The notes under the pieces were generated by a model. That model ran no database searches and had not been told where the DNA came from. It was given only the letters and a program-made list of their open reading frames with translations. From an uncultured SAR86 cluster bacterium (GTDB taxonomy: Bacteria > Pseudomonadota > Gammaproteobacteria > Magnimaribacterales > D2472), in contig CALSQM010000009.1 in NCBI GenBank assembly GCA_943788515.1, positions 1 to 36,013 of the forward strand: a DNA stretch of 36,013 nucleotides. The letters run 5' to 3'. Each line of letters opens with the position of its first letter. Position 1 is the first letter of the stretch. Of this stretch, positions 4,496-30,835 are shown in pieces. A program made the translations under genes and the position numbers.

Positions 4496-5218
4496 TTATA
4501 TTTGACGCTGTCTGCTCGCCTCTGAAAGTATTATCCCAGTTGCAACAGAAACATTAAAGCTTTTAAATAATTTATTGTTACTTAGGTTAATCTTGTGATC
4601 ACATTTTTCTAAGGTTTTTTCACGGACGCCAGACTCTTCTGCACCCATAATTATTGCAGAGGCTTCAGTAAAATTATAGTTAGTATGACTTTTTGAAGCA
4701 TGTTCACTAAGGCCATAAATATTTATATTGATACCTTGAAGATATTTAAGGCAATTTACTAAGTTAGTGACATGAAAAATTTTAATTACTTCAGCTCCGC
4801 CAACTGAAACTTTATGAGCTACTGAATTAATTGGAGCACAATGATGTTTATTAATTATCATTGCATCAACACCAATAACAGCTGCTGACCTTATGCAGGC
4901 GCCTAGATTTCTTGGGTCTATAATATTATCAAGTATTAAAATTAATGGATTTCGTGTTTGATCTAAATCTAAGAATAATTTTAGATCTTTAAAGCCCAAC
5001 TCAAGTTCGCTTGAGATGTATGCTTCAGGTTCTTGCTTTACCTTATTTGAGAATTCAAATGGAATTTTATTTTCTTCTATTTTCTGTATGAGTTTAGTTA
5101 TCCTGCCATCTTCTCTTTTTGCAGGAAGAGTAATTTTTTTTATTTTATGAGGATTATGTTCAAGTATGCTTTCAATGCTATGGAATCCAACCCTTAGATC
5201 ATTTTCTTTTTTATTCAT
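4496..5218 (-). CDS. rlmB: 23S rRNA (guanosine-2'-O-)-methyltransferase RlmB
   Basis: This 240-residue protein is a SpoU-family (SPOUT/TrmH) methyltransferase. RlmB in E. coli methylates the ribose of G2251 in the 23S P-loop. The substrate-binding N-terminal domain (GFHSIESILEHNP) is followed by the catalytic domain, with motif 1 in LDNIIDPRNLGACIRSA, motif 2 around IIMGAEESGV, and motif 3 in SFNVSVATGI. The start overlaps the rnr stop as ATGA, so the pair is translationally coupled, the same rnr-rlmB order as in E. coli. A different SpoU methyltransferase is possible, but the neighbour supports RlmB. Confidence 0.92.
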   Translation of the reverse strand: MNKKENDLRVGFHSIESILEHNPHKIKKITLPAKREDGRITKLIQKIEENKIPFEFSNKVKQEPEAYISSELELGFKDLKLFLDLDQTRNPLILILDNIIDPRNLGACIRSAAVIGVDAMIINKHHCAPINSVAHKVSVGGAEVIKIFHVTNLVNCLKYLQGININIYGLSEHASKSHTNYNFTEASAIIMGAEESGVREKTLEKCDHKINLSNNKLFKSFNVSVATGIILSEASRQRQI

Positions 5219-6702
5219 TTATTCTTTTTCTTTTCTTTAGGAACAAGGGTTATTTTACGTTCTTCTGGAGAGATGTTAGCTATTGTAACTAATATATTTT
5301 GACCCAATCTAAAAGACCTACCTGTTTTCTTTCCCTTTAATATATTGGCTTCTTTATCATAGAAATATCTGTCACTAGGAAGGTCTGTAACATGAATTAA
5401 TCCCGATACATAAAAATTATCTATTTCAGCAAAAAGACCAAATTCTGCAATACCAGTAACCACCGCATTAAAATCACTGCCCACATACTGCTTTAGATAG
5501 TAACAAATCATCTGTTGAGTAACCTGTCTAGATGCACGCTCTGCCATCCTTTCTAAATCTGACATCTCAACGCATTCTTCTTCTATCTCCTCTTTATTGA
5601 TTGCCAAGTCACCTTTATTTAATATATTTTTTATTAGCCTATGTGTCATAAGATCAGGATAACGCCTAATAGGAGAGGTAAAATGAGAGTATCTTTCTAG
5701 CTGAAGGCCAAAATGCCCAACTTCTTTTGTGGAATACTCTGCTCTTTTTAGACTTTGAAGAACTACAGTTTGAAGAACTTTATTTAGCTTCTTTTCTTTC
5801 GCATAAGATAGGCATTGATTTATTAGATCAAGTGGAATTTTTTTATAAGAGTCAGAAAATCCTTTGATTGAAAAGAAATTCTTCAAGCTCTCTAATTTAA
5901 GCTCTTCTGGCTCTTCGTGAATTCTATACACCCCAAACTTATAATGTTTATTCATAAAGTTTGCTGCACAAACATTTGCAGCCAACATGGCCTCCTCAAT
6001 CATCTGATGAGAAAATAACCTCTTGGGTAGTGTTATTTCATCAACCTTGCCTTCATTATTTATCCTCAAAAGTGGTTCTTGTCCCTCAATCTCAAGAGCC
6101 TGTCGTTGACTTCTCTTCTTTAAAAGAATATGGGTAAGTTCGCTAAGAGAGCGAATTGAATCTTCCACAGACTTTGACAGGGTAGAGTTATTTTTAAGAT
6201 ATTTATCTACTTCAATGTATGTCATTCTTTTATGAGATTTTATTCTTGCTTCTAGAAAATTATAAGATTGAAGATCACCAGAATTAGAAAAAACTATTTC
6301 ACAAATCAAGACATTTCTTATTTCATCTGGGACTAGTGAACAAAGATTGTTTGAAATTTTTTCAGGAAGCATTGGAATAACTTTTGATGGAAAGTATATG
6401 GATGTTCCTCTTTCAATTGCTTCATTATCCAATGCAGTTCCAGGTTTAACCAATTCGGCAACATCAGCTATTGCAACACTTAACGTAAAAGATGATTTAT
6501 TTTTAACACAGTGAACAGCATCATCAAAATCTTTTGCATCAGCACCATCTATTGTTATAAAAGGGACTTTAGTTAGGTCCTTTCTTGGTAAATTTTTATT
6601 TAACTTAATGTCAGCTAACTCGTTATCAATTTTTTCATTCCATTCAAAAGGAATATAGTTTTCTTCAATTACTTGAGATATTGTATTTTCTAGTTCATTC
6701 AT
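5215..6702 (-). CDS. rnr: RNase R-type 3'-5' exoribonuclease lacking the N-terminal cold-shock domains
   Basis: This 495-residue protein carries the RNB catalytic domain and C-terminal S1 domain of RNase II/RNase R. The active-site block TIDGADAKDFDDAV holds the four acidic residues (Asp52, 58, 60, 61), corresponding to Asp272, 278, 280 and 281 of E. coli RNase R. HFTSPIRRYPDL is also intact, and the S1 domain covers roughly residues 405-485 before a Lys-rich end. E. coli RNase R has about 813 residues: the N-terminal helix-turn-helix and both cold-shock domains are missing here. An in-frame stop lies just upstream of the ATG, and only about 70 bases separate it from the previous gene, so the missing part is not hidden. 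The rlmB neighbour favours RNase R over RNase II. Confidence 0.88.
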   Translation of the reverse strand: MNELENTISQVIEENYIPFEWNEKIDNELADIKLNKNLPRKDLTKVPFITIDGADAKDFDDAVHCVKNKSSFTLSVAIADVAELVKPGTALDNEAIERGTSIYFPSKVIPMLPEKISNNLCSLVPDEIRNVLICEIVFSNSGDLQSYNFLEARIKSHKRMTYIEVDKYLKNNSTLSKSVEDSIRSLSELTHILLKKRSQRQALEIEGQEPLLRINNEGKVDEITLPKRLFSHQMIEEAMLAANVCAANFMNKHYKFGVYRIHEEPEELKLESLKNFFSIKGFSDSYKKIPLDLINQCLSYAKEKKLNKVLQTVVLQSLKRAEYSTKEVGHFGLQLERYSHFTSPIRRYPDLMTHRLIKNILNKGDLAINKEEIEEECVEMSDLERMAERASRQVTQQMICYYLKQYVGSDFNAVVTGIAEFGLFAEIDNFYVSGLIHVTDLPSDRYFYDKEANILKGKKTGRSFRLGQNILVTIANISPEERKITLVPKEKKKNK

Positions 6703-6729
6703 TATGTGAGTTTAGTTTAAATTCCATGT

Positions 6730-6751
6730 AAAAGGTTTCTAAGAGCCTTTT
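6730..6751 (-). terminator. Weak hairpin between the receptor gene and rnr
   Basis: AAAAGG at 6730-6735 pairs with CCTTTT at 6746-6751 around a 10-base loop, giving a short A/T-flanked hairpin in the 71-base gap between the receptor stop and the rnr start. It could partly end transcription in either direction. The stem is only six pairs and there is no extra T-run, so the call is tentative. Confidence 0.3.
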
Positions 6752-6773
6752 ATGTTTGATATTTTTATTAATG

Positions 6774-9365
6774 TTAATTTTTGTATTCAAGGCTTATGCC
6801 TATGATTCTTCCTCTAGGATCATGAACTCTAGTATCAAAACTAAAATCAGGAGCATCATAAAGTCTTGGCGCTGCTTCATCAAAAACATTAATGATTGAT
6901 AGCTTGATATCAATTTCACCACTACTTGTTATTAACAATTTTTTTAATGAAAGGTCGTGAACAAAAAAAGAATCTACAGAATTATTATATCCATATGACG
7001 TTCCGAGACTGTTAATCGGTCGCTCATTACTATATCCATCAATATATCGAGAATTAAAGTTAATACTGTAATCTTGATATTTCCAATTTAAAAAAGCATT
7101 GATTCTATTTTTAGGAAGAGAGTGGGTGTTAGTATCGTAATTAAATTTACTAACTCTATCTATCATAATTTCACTACCCTCATTTACAAGGGCTGGTGTA
7201 AGAAATTCTATTAAAGTTGTTGAGTTTATTGATATTGATAAATTCCCAAGCCTATCTGAGTTTGCTAAAAGTCTATTAAAACTTAAATCAATTCCTGAAA
7301 CTTCAGTTGACTCTTCATTAAAATAAGTTGTGCTAACTCCAATCAAATCCCCAGCAGAATTTCTTGTAATACTTGGGCCATATGGGTTTGTGTTAAGTAT
7401 TACTTGTGCACTTTGAGCTTCAATTCTATTTTTGTAATCTATATTCCAATAATCAATACTTAGTCTTTGTTTTTGATTTTCAAAAATAAGCCCAATATTT
7501 ATATTTTTTGAGGTTGCGGGTTTAAGGTTCGGGTTGCCGATTTGTGCTTGCCTTACAAAAGGCGAATTACCATTAAAGTCCCTTACACTTCCTAAATTAA
7601 TATCACTTGAAAACATTTGTGCCATGGAGGGCATAGAAAAAGATGAACTTCTAGAAGCTCTTAAAGTTATATTTTCAGATGCGATATATTTAAAAGAAAT
7701 TTTAGGATCAAATGATGAGTCATTTTCAAGCTCTTCAAATCTACTGGCAATTTTGATATCAATATTTTCTATAGGTTTAGCCTGAATTTCAAAAAAACCA
7801 GCATATTTGTTTCTATTTTTTGAAACATTTGTACCTCCACCCAAAAAGAATAAGTCAGCTGATTTAATAATTTTGCCATCTAAATCAAACTGAGCTCTGC
7901 TAATGTCATCATATGAAATTTTAAGTTCTTCATCATTTAATTGAAGACCATATGCTATTTCATAGTTATCTATGTTAGTTCTAAATATAAAATCAAGAGT
8001 TTTTAAAGATGCTTCTTTAGAAGAAACTTCAGCACCCCTTACGTAGTTAATTAGTTCTTGAGAATTTTGCGATGAATCAAAAATATTCCAATATGCAAGA
8101 TTTCCAATAGATTGACCCATGGTTGTACCACTTAATGCTTCTAAGAATCTTGAATCAATAATATCTGGTCTGTAATGATTATTAGAGTGACTACTAATAG
8201 TTAAAGATGCCTCTAATTGAGTATTTTCATTAACATTAGTATTAATTGTCTGACTAAGATTATATTGTTTTATATCCTTGGGAGAATATGGAGATTCAAA
8301 TTCAGATCCAAGAGGTCGCCCATACCAAGTTACTGGAACATTAAAAGGATTTCCTCCTTGATTGGGTTGAATTTGTCTTGATAGAAAAGGAAGAGCAGGG
8401 TACGAGGGTGATTGAGGATTGTCATTTACTTCAACCTCTGACCCCACAAAGGTAATCTCATAAACATAACCACTTTTTTCAAAAGATAAATTGGCATATG
8501 CTTTTGAGTGATCTTCATCATTCACTATATTAAATCTGGCTCCATACAAGAATCTACAAAAAGATCCATCTAATACACCGCCATTTGTTTCACATTGCGG
8601 ATCAGGAACAAATTGATTTGCATTATAATTTCCTGAATATAAACCACTACTAACTGTATCATCGGTAGAAATTTTGAATGTTTTACCTAAGCCGCTAAGA
8701 CCAAGTTCTGCTATTCTGGGAATCTTGGAAGCAGAAAGAGCAGATCTTTCTAGAATATTAAGACCAAATACATAATTGCCATTTTTATAATTCGACCCTA
8801 TCAATAAGCCTATAGATTTATCACTCTGACTATAATTTGAAGTTTTAAAGTTATTAATTCTTAATTTAAATCCTTTAAAATCTTTTTGAGTTAAAACATT
8901 TACAACGCCAGCAACAGCATCAGATCCATACAGTGAGGTAGCACCTTCTTTTAAAATTTCAATTTGTTTGATTGCTATTTCAGGAACTATATTTATATCA
9001 ACATATCCCTGACCTTGATTAGATGGTGTTCCAGCAAAAGTATGCCTCTTTGAATTAAGTAAGAGCAGAGTAGAGGAGTGATCCAAGCCTCTTAGTGTTA
9101 TTGAGGCCATTCCTTGATCAACCCCCTCAAGTGCATTTGTTTGGAAATGCGAGCCAGATGATGATGTTAGAAATTTGCTAATTTCTGCAAAATTTGAAAT
9201 ATTAAAATTTTCAAAGTCCTCTCTAGTAACAACATCTACTGGCGATGCGTCTTTTTCTGAATTATTAATTAATGACCCAGTAGTAACTATCTCTTCAACG
9301 TTAGAGTTAGCTATGACAATTGGGCTTAATAATAATAAGTATATTATTTTATTGTGTTTAATCAT
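6774..9365 (-). CDS. TonB-dependent outer-membrane receptor, substrate unknown
   Basis: This is a TonB-dependent receptor of about 863 residues that would import a scarce ligand across the outer membrane using TonB-ExbBD energy. A short hydrophobic signal peptide (KIIYLLLLSPIVIANS) is followed by a TonB-box-like VEEIVTTG, a plug domain with TLRGLDHSSTLLLLNSKR and IEILKEGATSLYGSDAVAGVVN, then a long beta-barrel region. A Cys pair sits in DPQCETNGG...FCRFLYG. The end, GISLEYKN, lacks the usual final aromatic residue. I prefer the ATG at 9365, directly before the signal peptide, over a TTG 12 bases upstream. There is no His-rich loop or recognisable metabolic neighbour, so the ligand cannot be named. 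Confidence 0.9.
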   Translation of the reverse strand: MIKHNKIIYLLLLSPIVIANSNVEEIVTTGSLINNSEKDASPVDVVTREDFENFNISNFAEISKFLTSSSGSHFQTNALEGVDQGMASITLRGLDHSSTLLLLNSKRHTFAGTPSNQGQGYVDINIVPEIAIKQIEILKEGATSLYGSDAVAGVVNVLTQKDFKGFKLRINNFKTSNYSQSDKSIGLLIGSNYKNGNYVFGLNILERSALSASKIPRIAELGLSGLGKTFKISTDDTVSSGLYSGNYNANQFVPDPQCETNGGVLDGSFCRFLYGARFNIVNDEDHSKAYANLSFEKSGYVYEITFVGSEVEVNDNPQSPSYPALPFLSRQIQPNQGGNPFNVPVTWYGRPLGSEFESPYSPKDIKQYNLSQTINTNVNENTQLEASLTISSHSNNHYRPDIIDSRFLEALSGTTMGQSIGNLAYWNIFDSSQNSQELINYVRGAEVSSKEASLKTLDFIFRTNIDNYEIAYGLQLNDEELKISYDDISRAQFDLDGKIIKSADLFFLGGGTNVSKNRNKYAGFFEIQAKPIENIDIKIASRFEELENDSSFDPKISFKYIASENITLRASRSSSFSMPSMAQMFSSDINLGSVRDFNGNSPFVRQAQIGNPNLKPATSKNINIGLIFENQKQRLSIDYWNIDYKNRIEAQSAQVILNTNPYGPSITRNSAGDLIGVSTTYFNEESTEVSGIDLSFNRLLANSDRLGNLSISINSTTLIEFLTPALVNEGSEIMIDRVSKFNYDTNTHSLPKNRINAFLNWKYQDYSINFNSRYIDGYSNERPINSLGTSYGYNNSVDSFFVHDLSLKKLLITSSGEIDIKLSIINVFDEAAPRLYDAPDFSFDTRVHDPRGRIIGISLEYKN

Positions 9366-9442
9366 GTTATGACTCAAAAGAGCACATTCTCCGAAATATT
9401 TGCTATGAAACTAATTAATGGAATTTTACAGAATATAAAATA

Positions 9443-9847
9443 TTAAGTTTCTGAAGTTTCGTGACAATCACAGTTTAATTTTTTACAGACATCATAGTTT
9501 TTATAATGACAAGTAATTACCATGAGCGAGCCCAGGATCGTTAAAATTAGTTCTGCATTTTCACCAATACTTTCTCCAATTAGAAGCGCTGAAATAAGAA
9601 TAGTTAATCCAGCAATGCCAGTATAAATAATAGAGTTGTTTGAATGATTTTTATATCCCAAGCTAATTGCGAAGATGCTAACCGGAATTGTTAGAAGCAA
9701 TATAGCTTTATGAATGATCTCACTTTCCAGAGTTAAGGCCAAAGAGCTATATGACACTACTATTAAGGATGGAGCAAATAAACAATGTATCATGCAAATT
9801 GCTGAAAACGATATTGCAAATTTATCTGATGTAAGTTGTGATTTCAT
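9443..9847 (-). CDS. MerC-type metal-transport membrane protein
   Basis: This 134-residue protein looks like the MerC family of small inner-membrane metal transport proteins: about four hydrophobic segments, and in the first one the CxxHC metal motif (Cys18, His21, Cys22 in CMIHC). The C-terminal tail is a second Cys/His cluster (CHYKNYDVCKKLNCDCHE). MerC proteins were described in mercury resistance, but there is no merR, merA or merP here. The gene follows the His-rich, ZnuD-like receptor on the same strand, so a role in moving zinc or another soft metal is more likely. A terminator hairpin separates it from the receptor, and TATAAT almost abuts its ATG. Function is inferred from motif and context. 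Confidence 0.75.
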   Translation of the reverse strand: MKSQLTSDKFAISFSAICMIHCLFAPSLIVVSYSSLALTLESEIIHKAILLLTIPVSIFAISLGYKNHSNNSIIYTGIAGLTILISALLIGESIGENAELILTILGSLMVITCHYKNYDVCKKLNCDCHETSET

Positions 9848-9852
9848 AATTA

Positions 9853-9892
9853 TAAAAAAAACCCCCCAAACCTTATTTAAAGTCTAGGGGGT
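9853..9892 (-). terminator. Terminator after the His-rich receptor gene
   Basis: On the minus strand ACCCCC (9887-9892) pairs with GGGGGT (9861-9866) around a 20-base AT-rich loop and is followed by a run of T (9853-9860). The C/G runs stand out strongly from the AT-rich surroundings. It lies between the receptor stop (9917) and the merC-like start (9847), so it should end or attenuate the receptor transcript before that gene. Confidence 0.75.
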
Positions 9893-9916
9893 CTATATTA
9901 ATTGAAAAAATTTAAT

Positions 9917-12151
9917 TTAGTAAGTTAAATTAAATTTAATTCCATAATTTCTTCCGGGAAGTGGCACTTCATTTTTAACAAATGATGCATGGTTTCTAGC
10001 TACCTCATTAAGTAAGTTTTTACCAAATAATGTTACTTTAAGGTTGCTGTTGCCTTTTAGATTAAATGTTTTAGTTACCCTTGTATCTAACATTTGATAT
10101 GCATCAGTTGTAGATTCGCCTTCGCCAAAGTCATTTTGTTTAGCTACATCTTTAAGATTAAGTTTATAGACTAAACCTTCTTGCTCGTATGACAATGAAT
10201 ATACATTTCTTGATGGATTTATTCTTGGGACATTATGTCCATCAGCAAACTTAGCATTTACAACATCTCTGCCAAAAGACAACTTGAGTTGCCCTGCACC
10301 AAGATCAATAGTTCTTCCAAATTCTATTTCATATCCATCGAATTCCGCATCTTCTTGAACATAATTCGCATGTATTAAGTTTCCATGACCATGGTCATCT
10401 TCATCTTCATGATGCTCATCTTCGTCTTCATGATGCTCATCTTCATCTTCATGATGTTCATCTCCATGCATTTCATGATCATCATCCTCATCCATTAGAG
10501 TGATGTAGTTATCGACATCATTAATATAAAAATTTGCATAGCCAAAGTAGTCACCATTATCAAAGTTAAATGAAATATCAAAATTATTCGATGTTTCACT
10601 GCTCAATGTTGGGTCACCAACTTCAAATCTGCCTGTGGCCAAATGAGGGCCATTCATAAATAATTCAGTAACTGAAGGCATTCTTTCTACACTAGAAAAA
10701 CCTAAATTTATATCCAAACTATCAGTAAGATCTCTGCCAATACTTACAGCAAAACTATTTGTGTTTTCATCAATATTGTAGCTATCTATATCACCATGAT
10801 CTTCATCTGTAACAGTTCCTGATCTATCCACTTGATCTATCCTAATACCAAAATCAAGATGAAATGGATCAAAATCTTTACCTAAAAAGTAACCAAGCGT
10901 TAGCACTTCATTACTTGCAGGATTCATAAATGATTCTTCTCCAAAAATTGAAGTATTTTCTTCAACAAAATTGAATGATAATTTTTGAGTTAGGCTATCA
11001 TTTGATAAATCAAAGATCGCACCATACTCAGTAGCGCTATTTAAAAAATTTGTTGGAGTATGCTCTTCATGTTCTTCTTCATCCTCATGCTCTTCATGGC
11101 CTTCTTCTTCAGCATGAGCTTCAGTTAAGACATAATCAGTATCCCTATAGGTGTAGTCTACTTTTTTAACTAAATTTCCATTAATATTGTATGACCCTTT
11201 GATTGTAAAGCTTTCGGAATCAGTAGTTGAAAATATTCTTTCCTCTTCGTGCTCTTCCTCGTCACTATGCTCATCACCATGATCATCATCATGATCATCA
11301 CCATGTTCGTCACCATGCTCATCTCCATGCTCATCACCATGAAAAGGAATACCATAAACACTTTTGAGGCTATCTACAGAAAGTCCAACGTAACCCCAGT
11401 CTCCTACCTTTGAAATTCCAAATTTAGCTGCCTCAACTGCAAAATCAGAATTGTTAAGATACCCAAGGTTTTCTTCATGCTCTTCATGCCCCTCTTCATG
11501 ACCCTCTTCATGTTCTTCTTCATGAAGAATAGCTCCATTAGGAATATCATAGTTACCAAATTCAGTATTTTTATATCCAAAATTTACATTAAAACCATTA
11601 ATGTTTCTTTTGAGATTAACAAATTCAGAACTTCCACCATTCACAGATTGAGTCTCATATCCTATTTTTACTTCTGGGATTTCAAAATTCATGGCAGCAA
11701 TACAGTCATCAACTACGTTGATTATTCCTCCAATTGTTCCATTTGCATAAAGTAAAGAGGATGGACCTTTAACTATCTCTATTTGTTGAATGTCATTTAA
11801 ATCAACATCATTTAAGTGATCAGCACCAAGCCCTGATACGTCTCTATTGACCATTCCATTTTTGAGAATCTTTACTTTTGGACCTGACATTCCTCTTATT
11901 ATTGGCTGCCCAACAGCAGATCCATAATCCGCTATGAATATTCCTAGCAATCCATCAATTGCATCACCTAGACTTGTTGTTGCATCATCAACAATCTCAT
12001 CCCCATTAATAACATATAGAGGGTTAGTAATTTGAGTGGTATCTATCAAAGCAGATGTAACCACTATTTCTTCAACATCTTGTGCAATAATTGCAGACGT
12101 AAACATCGATGATGTTGTCATAACAATAAATGCGTTAAAAAATTTGTTCAT
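9917..12151 (-). CDS. ZnuD-like TonB-dependent receptor with His/Asp/Glu-rich segments
   Basis: This 744-residue outer-membrane receptor has a signal peptide ending near Ala23, a TonB box (VEEIVVTSALI), a plug domain (GQPIIRGMSGPKVKILKNG; IEIVKGPSSLLYANGTIGGIINVVD) and a beta-barrel ending in the typical aromatic residue (GIKFNLTY). Four segments are extraordinarily rich in His, Asp and Glu, near residues 208-227, 270-304, 342-364 and 554-587 (for example HGDEHGDEHGDD and HHEDEDEHHEDED). Such loops are known in zinc receptors of the ZnuD type, so zinc is the best guess; nickel, cobalt or copper remain possible. A strong AAGGAG Shine-Dalgarno lies five bases before the ATG, just downstream of a heptanucleotide repeat. 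The gene follows a small secreted His/Cys protein. Confidence 0.9.
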   Translation of the reverse strand: MNKFFNAFIVMTTSSMFTSAIIAQDVEEIVVTSALIDTTQITNPLYVINGDEIVDDATTSLGDAIDGLLGIFIADYGSAVGQPIIRGMSGPKVKILKNGMVNRDVSGLGADHLNDVDLNDIQQIEIVKGPSSLLYANGTIGGIINVVDDCIAAMNFEIPEVKIGYETQSVNGGSSEFVNLKRNINGFNVNFGYKNTEFGNYDIPNGAILHEEEHEEGHEEGHEEHEENLGYLNNSDFAVEAAKFGISKVGDWGYVGLSVDSLKSVYGIPFHGDEHGDEHGDEHGDDHDDDHGDEHSDEEEHEEERIFSTTDSESFTIKGSYNINGNLVKKVDYTYRDTDYVLTEAHAEEEGHEEHEDEEEHEEHTPTNFLNSATEYGAIFDLSNDSLTQKLSFNFVEENTSIFGEESFMNPASNEVLTLGYFLGKDFDPFHLDFGIRIDQVDRSGTVTDEDHGDIDSYNIDENTNSFAVSIGRDLTDSLDINLGFSSVERMPSVTELFMNGPHLATGRFEVGDPTLSSETSNNFDISFNFDNGDYFGYANFYINDVDNYITLMDEDDDHEMHGDEHHEDEDEHHEDEDEHHEDEDDHGHGNLIHANYVQEDAEFDGYEIEFGRTIDLGAGQLKLSFGRDVVNAKFADGHNVPRINPSRNVYSLSYEQEGLVYKLNLKDVAKQNDFGEGESTTDAYQMLDTRVTKTFNLKGNSNLKVTLFGKNLLNEVARNHASFVKNEVPLPGRNYGIKFNLTY
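10396..10458 (-). repeat. Three 21-bp tandem repeats coding His/Glu/Asp segment
   Basis: Three adjacent 21-bp units (10396-10416, 10417-10437, 10438-10458) differ at only two positions and encode repeated HHEDEDE in the receptor. Being a multiple of three, gain or loss of units would change the length of the metal-binding segment without breaking the frame. Confidence 0.88.
11270..11341 (-). repeat. Six 12-bp tandem repeats coding HGDE-like units
   Basis: Six adjacent 12-bp units with consensus CTCATCACCATG on the plus strand encode HGDE/HGDD/HDDD units in the second His-rich segment of the receptor. The units are imperfect. The in-frame period allows length variation in the protein. Confidence 0.85.

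Positions 12152-22575: not shown

Positions 22576-30835
<8,260 letters not shown>

What the first reader, a model, noticed from the sequence alone, without database searches (positions are those of the whole stretch)
5215..6702. RNase R reduced to catalytic plus S1 domains
The protein has an intact active site and S1 domain but lacks the N-terminal helix-turn-helix and both cold-shock domains (495 against about 813 residues in E. coli). An in-frame stop before the ATG and a neighbouring gene 71 bases away exclude a hidden N-terminus. In E. coli RNase R the cold-shock and helical regions bind and unwind structured RNA, so a minimal form may behave differently with structured rRNA or tRNA.
Basis: partly seen in the sequence, partly recalled or inferred. 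Interest (0 to 1): 0.5.

Follow-up and report, generated by a model that had tools for sequence, protein, structure and literature searches.

The report
Stripped-down RNase R in SAR86 bacteria
A common ocean bacterium carries a working-looking but stripped-down version of the RNA-degrading enzyme RNase R, without the parts that normally grip and select RNA, and its relatives show this was a real, repeated evolutionary loss and not a sequencing fault.

Summary
Window 5215-6702(-) encodes a 495-aa RNase R orthologue: RNB plus S1, without HTH, cold-shock domains (CSD1, CSD2) or K/R-rich tail, beside rlmB. It is not a local truncation. In the window's SAR86 family (f1, read as Suzuki/D2472) all 80 copies with a whole RNB domain have open frames of 458-519 aa. 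Family f4 is equally short; families f2 and f3 mostly keep a diverged CSD region at the same locus. Genus g12 inside f3, and another small-genome gammaproteobacterial family, lost it separately. No stand-alone CSD partner was found in f1. Eight of nine checked active-site residues are invariant in f1, dN/dS is 0.05-0.18, and a confident model (pLDDT 91) overlays E. coli RNase R and keeps the tri-helix wedge. Most likely it is still a 3'->5' exonuclease that opens duplexes with the wedge, but lacks the CSD gate, ribosome anchor and SmpB-recruiting tail. Published work (RNB alone suffices for unwinding) argues against simple loss of activity on structured RNA. Minimal RNB enzymes are known in Haloferax and Deinococcus; new here are the graded, recurrent loss and the accompanying shortening of ribosomal protein S1 and loss of Csp proteins.

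The parts
5215..6702 (-). minimal RNase R (rnr), 495 aa, RNB + S1 only
5617..6585 (-). RNB catalytic domain (residues 40-362)
   Evidence: Pfam PF00773; fold match to E. coli RNase R 5xgu
6520..6549 (-). catalytic aspartate cluster D52, D58, D60, D61 (E. coli RNase R D272, D278, D280, D281)
   Evidence: identical in 69 of 69 f1 locus copies
5746..5913 (-). tri-helix wedge (residues about 264-319; model helices 267-279, 290-303, 308-317)
   Evidence: mapped by hand from B. subtilis 477-534 (PMC10901742 passage) through the alignment; model
5245..5484 (-). S1 domain (residues 407-486)
   Evidence: Pfam PF00575
6661..6696 (-). short N-terminal helix (residues 3-14), aligned with the E. coli linker after CSD2
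   Evidence: alignments; model
6712..6714 (-). in-frame TAA stop 12 bases before the ATG
6703..6773 (.). 71-base intergenic gap to the TonB receptor gene
4496..5218 (-). rlmB (23S rRNA G2251 2'-O-methyltransferase), overlapping rnr by 4 bases; conserved neighbour
   Evidence: TIGR00186 above cut-off; same order in E. coli and in 105 of 109 SAR86 loci

Best explanation
The gene is the ancestral rnr (RNase R) of this lineage, shortened by loss of its N-terminal domains and of the K/R-rich tail, and kept under purifying selection. SHOWN: orthology (rlmB neighbour, closer to RNase R than to RNase II, gene tree), architecture, conserved active site, constraint, and a model with the RNase R fold and three helices where the tri-helix wedge lies. 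INFERRED: the order of loss (HTH first, then CSD1 and CSD2), and that it works as a hydrolytic, metal-dependent 3'->5' exoribonuclease. A 3' end enters the RNB channel directly, S1 and the exposed wedge hold and split a duplex, and hydrolysis pulls the strand in. Without the CSDs, which move aside in RNase R and Dis3L2 before duplex unwinding, the wedge is permanently exposed. Structured RNA should therefore still be digested, but with weaker initial binding, less discrimination by 3' overhang, no HTH anchor on the 30S subunit and no SmpB/tmRNA recruitment through the tail.
For: Orthology: BLAST bits 335 to E. coli RNase R against 186 to RNase II; rlmB on the same strand next door in 105 of 109 SAR86 loci, the other four running off the stretch held; RNase R tree. 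Architecture: 80 of 80 whole-RNB copies in f1 have frames of 458-519 aa; with HMMs of HTH, CSD1 and CSD2, 0 of 69 f1 locus copies match at E<0.1. Constraint: dN/dS 0.05-0.18 in seven comparisons, four of them with dS near 2, that is saturated. Active site: eight of nine checked positions (four Asp, two Tyr, Glu, Arg) identical in 69 of 69 f1 copies. Structure: pLDDT 90.9, pTM 0.89; TM 0.91 to E. coli RNase R 5xgu; Z 42.7 to 5xgu and 41.9 to 7dol, the double-strand complex of M. genitalium RNase R, whose chain holds 565 residues against 644 in the apo form. Mechanism precedent: PMC12320835 sections 4 and 6 and passages of others; [quoted passage not shown]
Against: No activity was measured. NCBIfam's RNase_R equivalog cut-off is not reached (541.8 against 597.85 bits); two CSD-region-bearing SAR86 members also miss it (571.0 and 556.3), so divergence as well as truncation lowers the score. 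Haloferax RNase R, also minimal, behaves like RNase II at lower temperature (PMC12320835 section 4), so duplex activity at sea temperatures is uncertain. The wedge part of the model is its less certain region (pLDDT block means 69-89 around residues 271-320). No compensating substitutions common to the four minimal groups stood out (2 columns; one other split of the groups gave 14 and five gave 2).
Confidence: 0.72

Rival explanations
1. The minimal enzyme has become an RNase II-like single-strand exonuclease; structured RNA is left to PNPase and helicases.
For: Haloferax minimal RNase R is RNase II-like at low temperature (PMC12320835 section 4). PNPase passes its family cut-off in 95 of 101 SAR86 genomes. 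Dis3L2 without CSDs initiates and unwinds less well.
Against: The tri-helix wedge is retained; [quoted passage not shown] sequence and fold are nearer to RNase R than to RNase II.
Confidence: 0.2
2. CSD/HTH function is supplied in trans by a separate protein.
For: 50 of 59 f2-f4 genomes carry a CSD-type protein, so such RNA chaperones exist in the order. Helicase and HTH partners were not tested.
Against: In f1, 41 of 42 genomes of about 80% completeness or more have no CSD match (f1 total from the listing). A profile of the f2/f3 RNase R N-terminal region finds 0 of 58 f1 genomes, while it rings in 42 of 101 across the order, including the genomes it was built from. In the window's own genome the only OB_RNB hit lies in Rho.
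Confidence: 0.1
3. Assembly fault, wrong start or decaying pseudogene.
For: This assembly does have frameshifts elsewhere: rpoB in the window and rpsA.
Against: Three named records (L078, L079, L080: a single-cell genome and two MAGs) have the same start and length; 80 of 80 whole-domain f1 copies are short; dN/dS is low; active-site residues are invariant; 84 upstream regions were examined.
Confidence: 0.02

Closest known systems
Canonical RNase R (E. coli, B. subtilis, M. genitalium)
   Same: RNB and S1 fold, active site, tri-helix region, rnr-rlmB order (E. coli)
   Different: No HTH, CSD1, CSD2 or K/R-rich tail
Haloferax volcanii RNase R
   Same: Mostly an RNB domain with rudimentary accessory domains (PMC12320835 section 4)
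   Different: Archaeal; recalled as lacking a full S1 domain; the SAR86 form has a clear S1 and belongs to a graded series of losses
Deinococcus radiodurans RNase II (2r7d)
   Same: Short RNB enzyme with minimal accessory domains; fold match Z 36.5
   Different: Only 19-21% identity; recalled as carrying a winged-helix domain in place of the CSDs; named RNase II
Dis3L2 with CSDs deleted (engineered)
   Same: RNB + S1 without CSDs; poorer initiation and early unwinding (PMC10023572 passages)
   Different: Laboratory mutant of a human enzyme

Membership tests
RNase R (rnr) | RNB domain with the catalytic Asp cluster | tested here: met
RNase R (rnr) | C-terminal S1 domain | tested here: met
RNase R (rnr) | descent from rnr: gene tree, similarity, rlmB neighbour | tested here: met
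RNase R (rnr) | two N-terminal cold-shock domains | tested here: not met
   positive control
RNase R (rnr) | N-terminal HTH/winged-helix domain | tested here: not met
   positive control
RNase R (rnr) | K/R-rich C-terminal extension | tested here: not met
   protein ends nine residues after the S1 match
RNase R (rnr) | NCBIfam TIGR02063 equivalog cut-off | tested here: not met
   541.8 of 597.85 bits; four other SAR86 members tested also below
RNase R (rnr) | degrades structured RNA | not testable with these tools
   needs assay
RNase II/RNB superfamily | TIGR00358 superfamily cut-off and RNB fold | tested here: met
   460.8 against 368.6 bits
RNase II (rnb) | TIGR02062/NF003455 equivalog cut-off | tested here: not met
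   249.6 of 641.9 and 287.2 of 542

The most novel reading that the evidence does not exclude
In the common ancestor of two SAR86 families the RNA-handling machinery shed its OB-fold modules together: RNase R lost CSD1 and CSD2, ribosomal protein S1 lost its C-terminal part, and family f1 then lost nearly every Csp-type protein. RNase R would there be released from CSD gating and from ribosome and tmRNA targeting, and become an overhang-independent general RNA shredder. The same RNase R loss arose separately in genus g12 and in another small-genome gammaproteobacterial family.
Probability: 0.2. Interest if true: 0.65.

Novelty: new variant of a known kind. Interest (0 to 1): 0.45.

Why it matters
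Much of what is known of RNase R domain functions comes from engineered deletions. Here evolution has made similar deletions step by step in one order of abundant ocean bacteria: full-length in other gammaproteobacteria, a CSD-region-RNB-S1 form in two SAR86 families, RNB-S1 in two others and, separately, in genus g12 and another small-genome family. These are natural test proteins for whether the CSDs are a gate, a grip or a targeting device, and whether an RNB + S1 core can keep structured RNA turning over in a cell that also lacks cold-shock proteins.

Tried and rejected
Hidden N-terminus, frameshift or split gene: rejected. The one positive, G132/L159 in f2, has its CSD part in another frame and is not counted as a loss. 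Separate CSD partner: OB_RNB, CSD and a profile of f2/f3 RNase R N-terminal regions gave no candidate in f1 beyond Rho and one Csp in G010, on a 7.3-kb contig; I examined only the own genome's OB_RNB hit and found Rho, and take the other OB_RNB hits in f1 frames of 424-461 aa for Rho by length only (the f4 and G010 hits in short frames, 59-107 aa, are taken for Csp). Intermediate-length f2/f3 proteins being RNase II: considered, rejected. Compensating substitutions shared by the minimal groups: 2 columns; true split tied second with five others among 35 splits, the best giving 14, so nothing distinctive. Charge compensation in RNB-S1: no consistent trend (means +0.5 to +25.5 in minimal groups). 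The RpoB tree does not support f1+f4 as sisters: f1 joins f2+f3, and f4, on a long branch, is split off by the outgroup rows. This is against the RNase R tree and the published phylogenomics (PMC11582366 passages), so one or two losses remain possible there. Not tested: DEAD-box helicases, SmpB/tmRNA, RNase E, expression. Paper searches: RNase R with SAR86 gave 0 papers; RNase R with domain loss and RNB 0; ribonuclease R with cold shock protein, genome reduction and marine 0; SAR86, cold shock, ribosomal protein S1, exoribonuclease, any two, gave 633 papers of which I saw 12 in the listing, none holding SAR86. The main text of PMC11582366 holds no 'cold shock', 'ribonuclease' or 'RNase'; its supplements were not seen. 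The library holds open-licence papers only.

Full report
WHAT IS THERE. The ORF at 5215-6702(-) encodes 495 aa. Pfam finds RNB (residues 40-362) and S1 (407-486) and nothing before RNB. The same scan of E. coli RNase R finds HTH_12, OB_RNB, CSD2, RNB and S1. An in-frame TAA lies 12 bases upstream of the ATG and the next gene is 71 bases away. The protein begins at the linker that in E. coli follows CSD2 (alignments). The K/R-rich tail of E. coli is also missing. The own genome (79% complete) holds a single RNB match.

WHOSE IT IS. The closest named records are SAR86 cluster genomes, with protein identity 98% to SCGC AAA076-P13 and HE327_NSB094. I read the search tool's families f1-f4 inside the order as the four SAR86 families of PMC11582366 (passages): f1 as Suzuki/D2472 and f3 as RedeBAC7D11 by their 10 and 4 genera, f2 as Magnimaribacteraceae (largest genomes) and f4 as CHAB-I-7 (smallest). 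The genus numbers of f2 and f4 in my samples (7 and 1) differ from the paper's table (4 each).

IT IS RNASE R. The window protein scores 335 bits against E. coli RNase R and 186 against RNase II. rlmB follows on the same strand, as in E. coli, in 105 of 109 SAR86 loci, the other four running off the stretch held, and in 38 of 49 loci from outside the order. In the RNase R tree, f1 with f4 and f2 with f3 form supported groups. The formal RNase_R equivalog cut-off is missed (541.8 of 597.85 bits), as it also is by the four other SAR86 members tested, two of them with a CSD region (571.0 and 556.3). The superfamily cut-off is passed.

IT IS FAMILY-WIDE. In f1, 86 of 99 genomes drawn have an RNB match. 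80 copies cover the whole domain, and all 80 lie in open frames of 458-519 aa (458 is cut by a contig end); 8 further rows are fragments. In the order search (rows listed; the table was cut), 13 whole-domain f4 copies have frames of 489-526 aa. 27 of 29 f2 rows have 641-681 aa; of the other two, G132 is frameshifted and G180 starts at a contig end. Genera g15, g16 and g19 of f3 have 594-656 aa (26 rows), and g12 of f3 has 526-548 aa (four rows) plus one that runs off its stretch. Domain HMMs built from 29 class members and E. coli found no HTH, CSD1 or CSD2 at E<0.1 in 69 f1, 11 f4 or 5 g12 locus copies; some f1 loci are the same genome fetched twice. No HTH was found in f2 or the other f3 copies. 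A CSD was found in 13 of 13 other f3 copies but in only 5 of 11 f2 copies at that cut-off; for f2 the CSD region rests also on alignment to RNase R from model position 68 onward (L133) and to the f3 region. A profile of the f2/f3 N-terminal regions (A2) rang in 42 of 101 order genomes, some of which gave its rows, always in the RNase R frame (once, G132, in a separate 129-aa frame); none of the 42 is f1, f4 or g12. It rang in 0 of 58 f1 genomes. A similar profile that also took in the linker gave weak hits in the five g12 copies (E 3e-5 to 1.5e-3), which may lie in the linker.

IT HAPPENED MORE THAN ONCE. g12 sits inside f3, beside g19, in both the RpoB tree and the RNase R tree, so its loss is separate from that of f1/f4. 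A gammaproteobacterial family outside the order (f40, genomes of 0.7-1.1 Mb) has the short form too. All 12 of its genomes drawn have RNB, 10 with frames of 504-525 aa and 2 running off the stretch held, and no N-terminal domain lies in the loci held. In the class-wide sample (216 of 230 genomes matched; table cut) every other listed frame is 690-1082 aa except that of G207 (522), which runs off its contig (L138). Whether f1 and f4 share one loss is open. The RNase R tree and the published phylogenomics make them sisters; the RpoB tree does not.

IT LOOKS FUNCTIONAL. dN/dS against seven relatives is 0.05-0.18, with dS saturated in four of them. Of nine E. coli RNase II active-site positions mapped, eight are identical in 69 of 69 f1 copies; the ninth (E542 of RNase II) is not conserved in E. 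coli RNase R either. The AlphaFold2 model (34 sequences) has pLDDT 90.9 and pTM 0.89. It matches E. coli RNase R 5xgu with TM 0.91 and Z 42.7, and M. genitalium RNase R (7did) with Z 43.5. The tri-helix region (B. subtilis residues 477-534, PMC10901742 passages) maps by hand, through the alignment, to residues 264-319, where the model shows three helices, at somewhat lower confidence than elsewhere.

HOW IT PROBABLY WORKS. According to the review PMC12320835 (sections 4 and 6 read, passages of others; [quoted passage not shown] Removing the CSDs from Dis3L2 hurts initiation and early unwinding, while removing the trihelix impairs dsRNA but not ssRNA degradation (PMC10023572 passages). In B. 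subtilis the HTH and RNB contacts, but not the tested CSD2 contact alone, matter for association with 30S degradation intermediates (PMC10901742 passages). The K/R-rich tail is needed for ribosome association with SmpB in E. coli (PMC12320835 passage). The natural SAR86 protein is therefore expected to remain an exonuclease able to open duplexes, with altered selection and targeting.

WHAT GOES WITH IT. CSD-family matches were found in 1 of 42 f1 genomes but in 50 of 59 f2-f4 genomes (f4 10 of 12). The matches come; the family totals come from the fuller listing, run with the same settings and the same total of 101. Ribosomal protein S1 ends near model position 430 of 516 in f1 (33 whole rows, 435-447 aa) and f4 (6 rows without a stop inside, 437-442 aa; 4 more f4 rows were read through stops). 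It is 558-575 aa in 37 of 39 f2/f3 rows, the other two lying at contig ends (sequences). Pfam counts five S1 stretches in both a short (L209) and a long (L214) form, so that the missing part is the sixth repeat is read from length, model coverage and sequence, not from Pfam. In g12, S1 is full-length in G100 and G160, cut by a contig end in G127 and without a whole row in G171, and a CSD protein is present in 4 of 4, so these losses are not strictly tied to the RNase R loss. PNPase passes its cut-off in 95 of 101 genomes.

NOVELTY. Minimal RNB enzymes are in print for Haloferax and Deinococcus (PMC12320835 section 4). I found no paper on RNase R in SAR86 in the held library. The new parts are the natural, graded and recurrent series and the accompanying losses.

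Noticed in passing
window 23239-26637 (+): rpoB is split over all three frames with at least five frame switches against a relative's RpoB, and the own genome's rpsA is split too; the assembly has indel errors outside the rnr gene.
   Followed up: partly
f1 genomes (42 in the listing): The window's family has no CSD-type cold-shock match except one in G010 (contig C76, 7.3 kb), unlike 50 of 59 genomes in the other SAR86 families.
   Followed up: partly
L209-L218 and rows: Ribosomal protein S1 lacks about 120 C-terminal residues (where the sixth repeat would lie) in f1 and f4 but not in f2/f3, including two g12 genomes.
   Followed up: partly
window 5100-6700 against 6900-9900: Mosaic identity in 300-base bins: rnr is 94-99% identical to L078/L079 with the downstream flank at 76-92%, while the TonB/MerC stretch is 94-97% identical to L080 and only 55-77% to L078/L079; looks like homologous recombination with a break near 6.7 kb.
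   Followed up: partly
L110:4649-8423: Two consecutive RNB-family genes (601 and 602 aa frames) beside rlmB in Gammaproteobacteria bacterium bin55, the second strongly diverged.
   Followed up: no
L159 (G132:C105): CSD part of rnr lies in a separate frame upstream of the RNB frame; frameshift or assembly error, origin not determined.
   Followed up: partly
L206 against L204/L205: One f2 CSD protein frame is about 130 aa with a hydrophobic N-terminal half, whereas two f4 ones are about 70 aa and CspA-like.
   Followed up: no
window 9443-12151 (-): A MerC-like membrane protein lies next to a TonB receptor whose best NCBIfam match is ZnuD (below cut-off), suggesting a metal-uptake pair.
   Followed up: no
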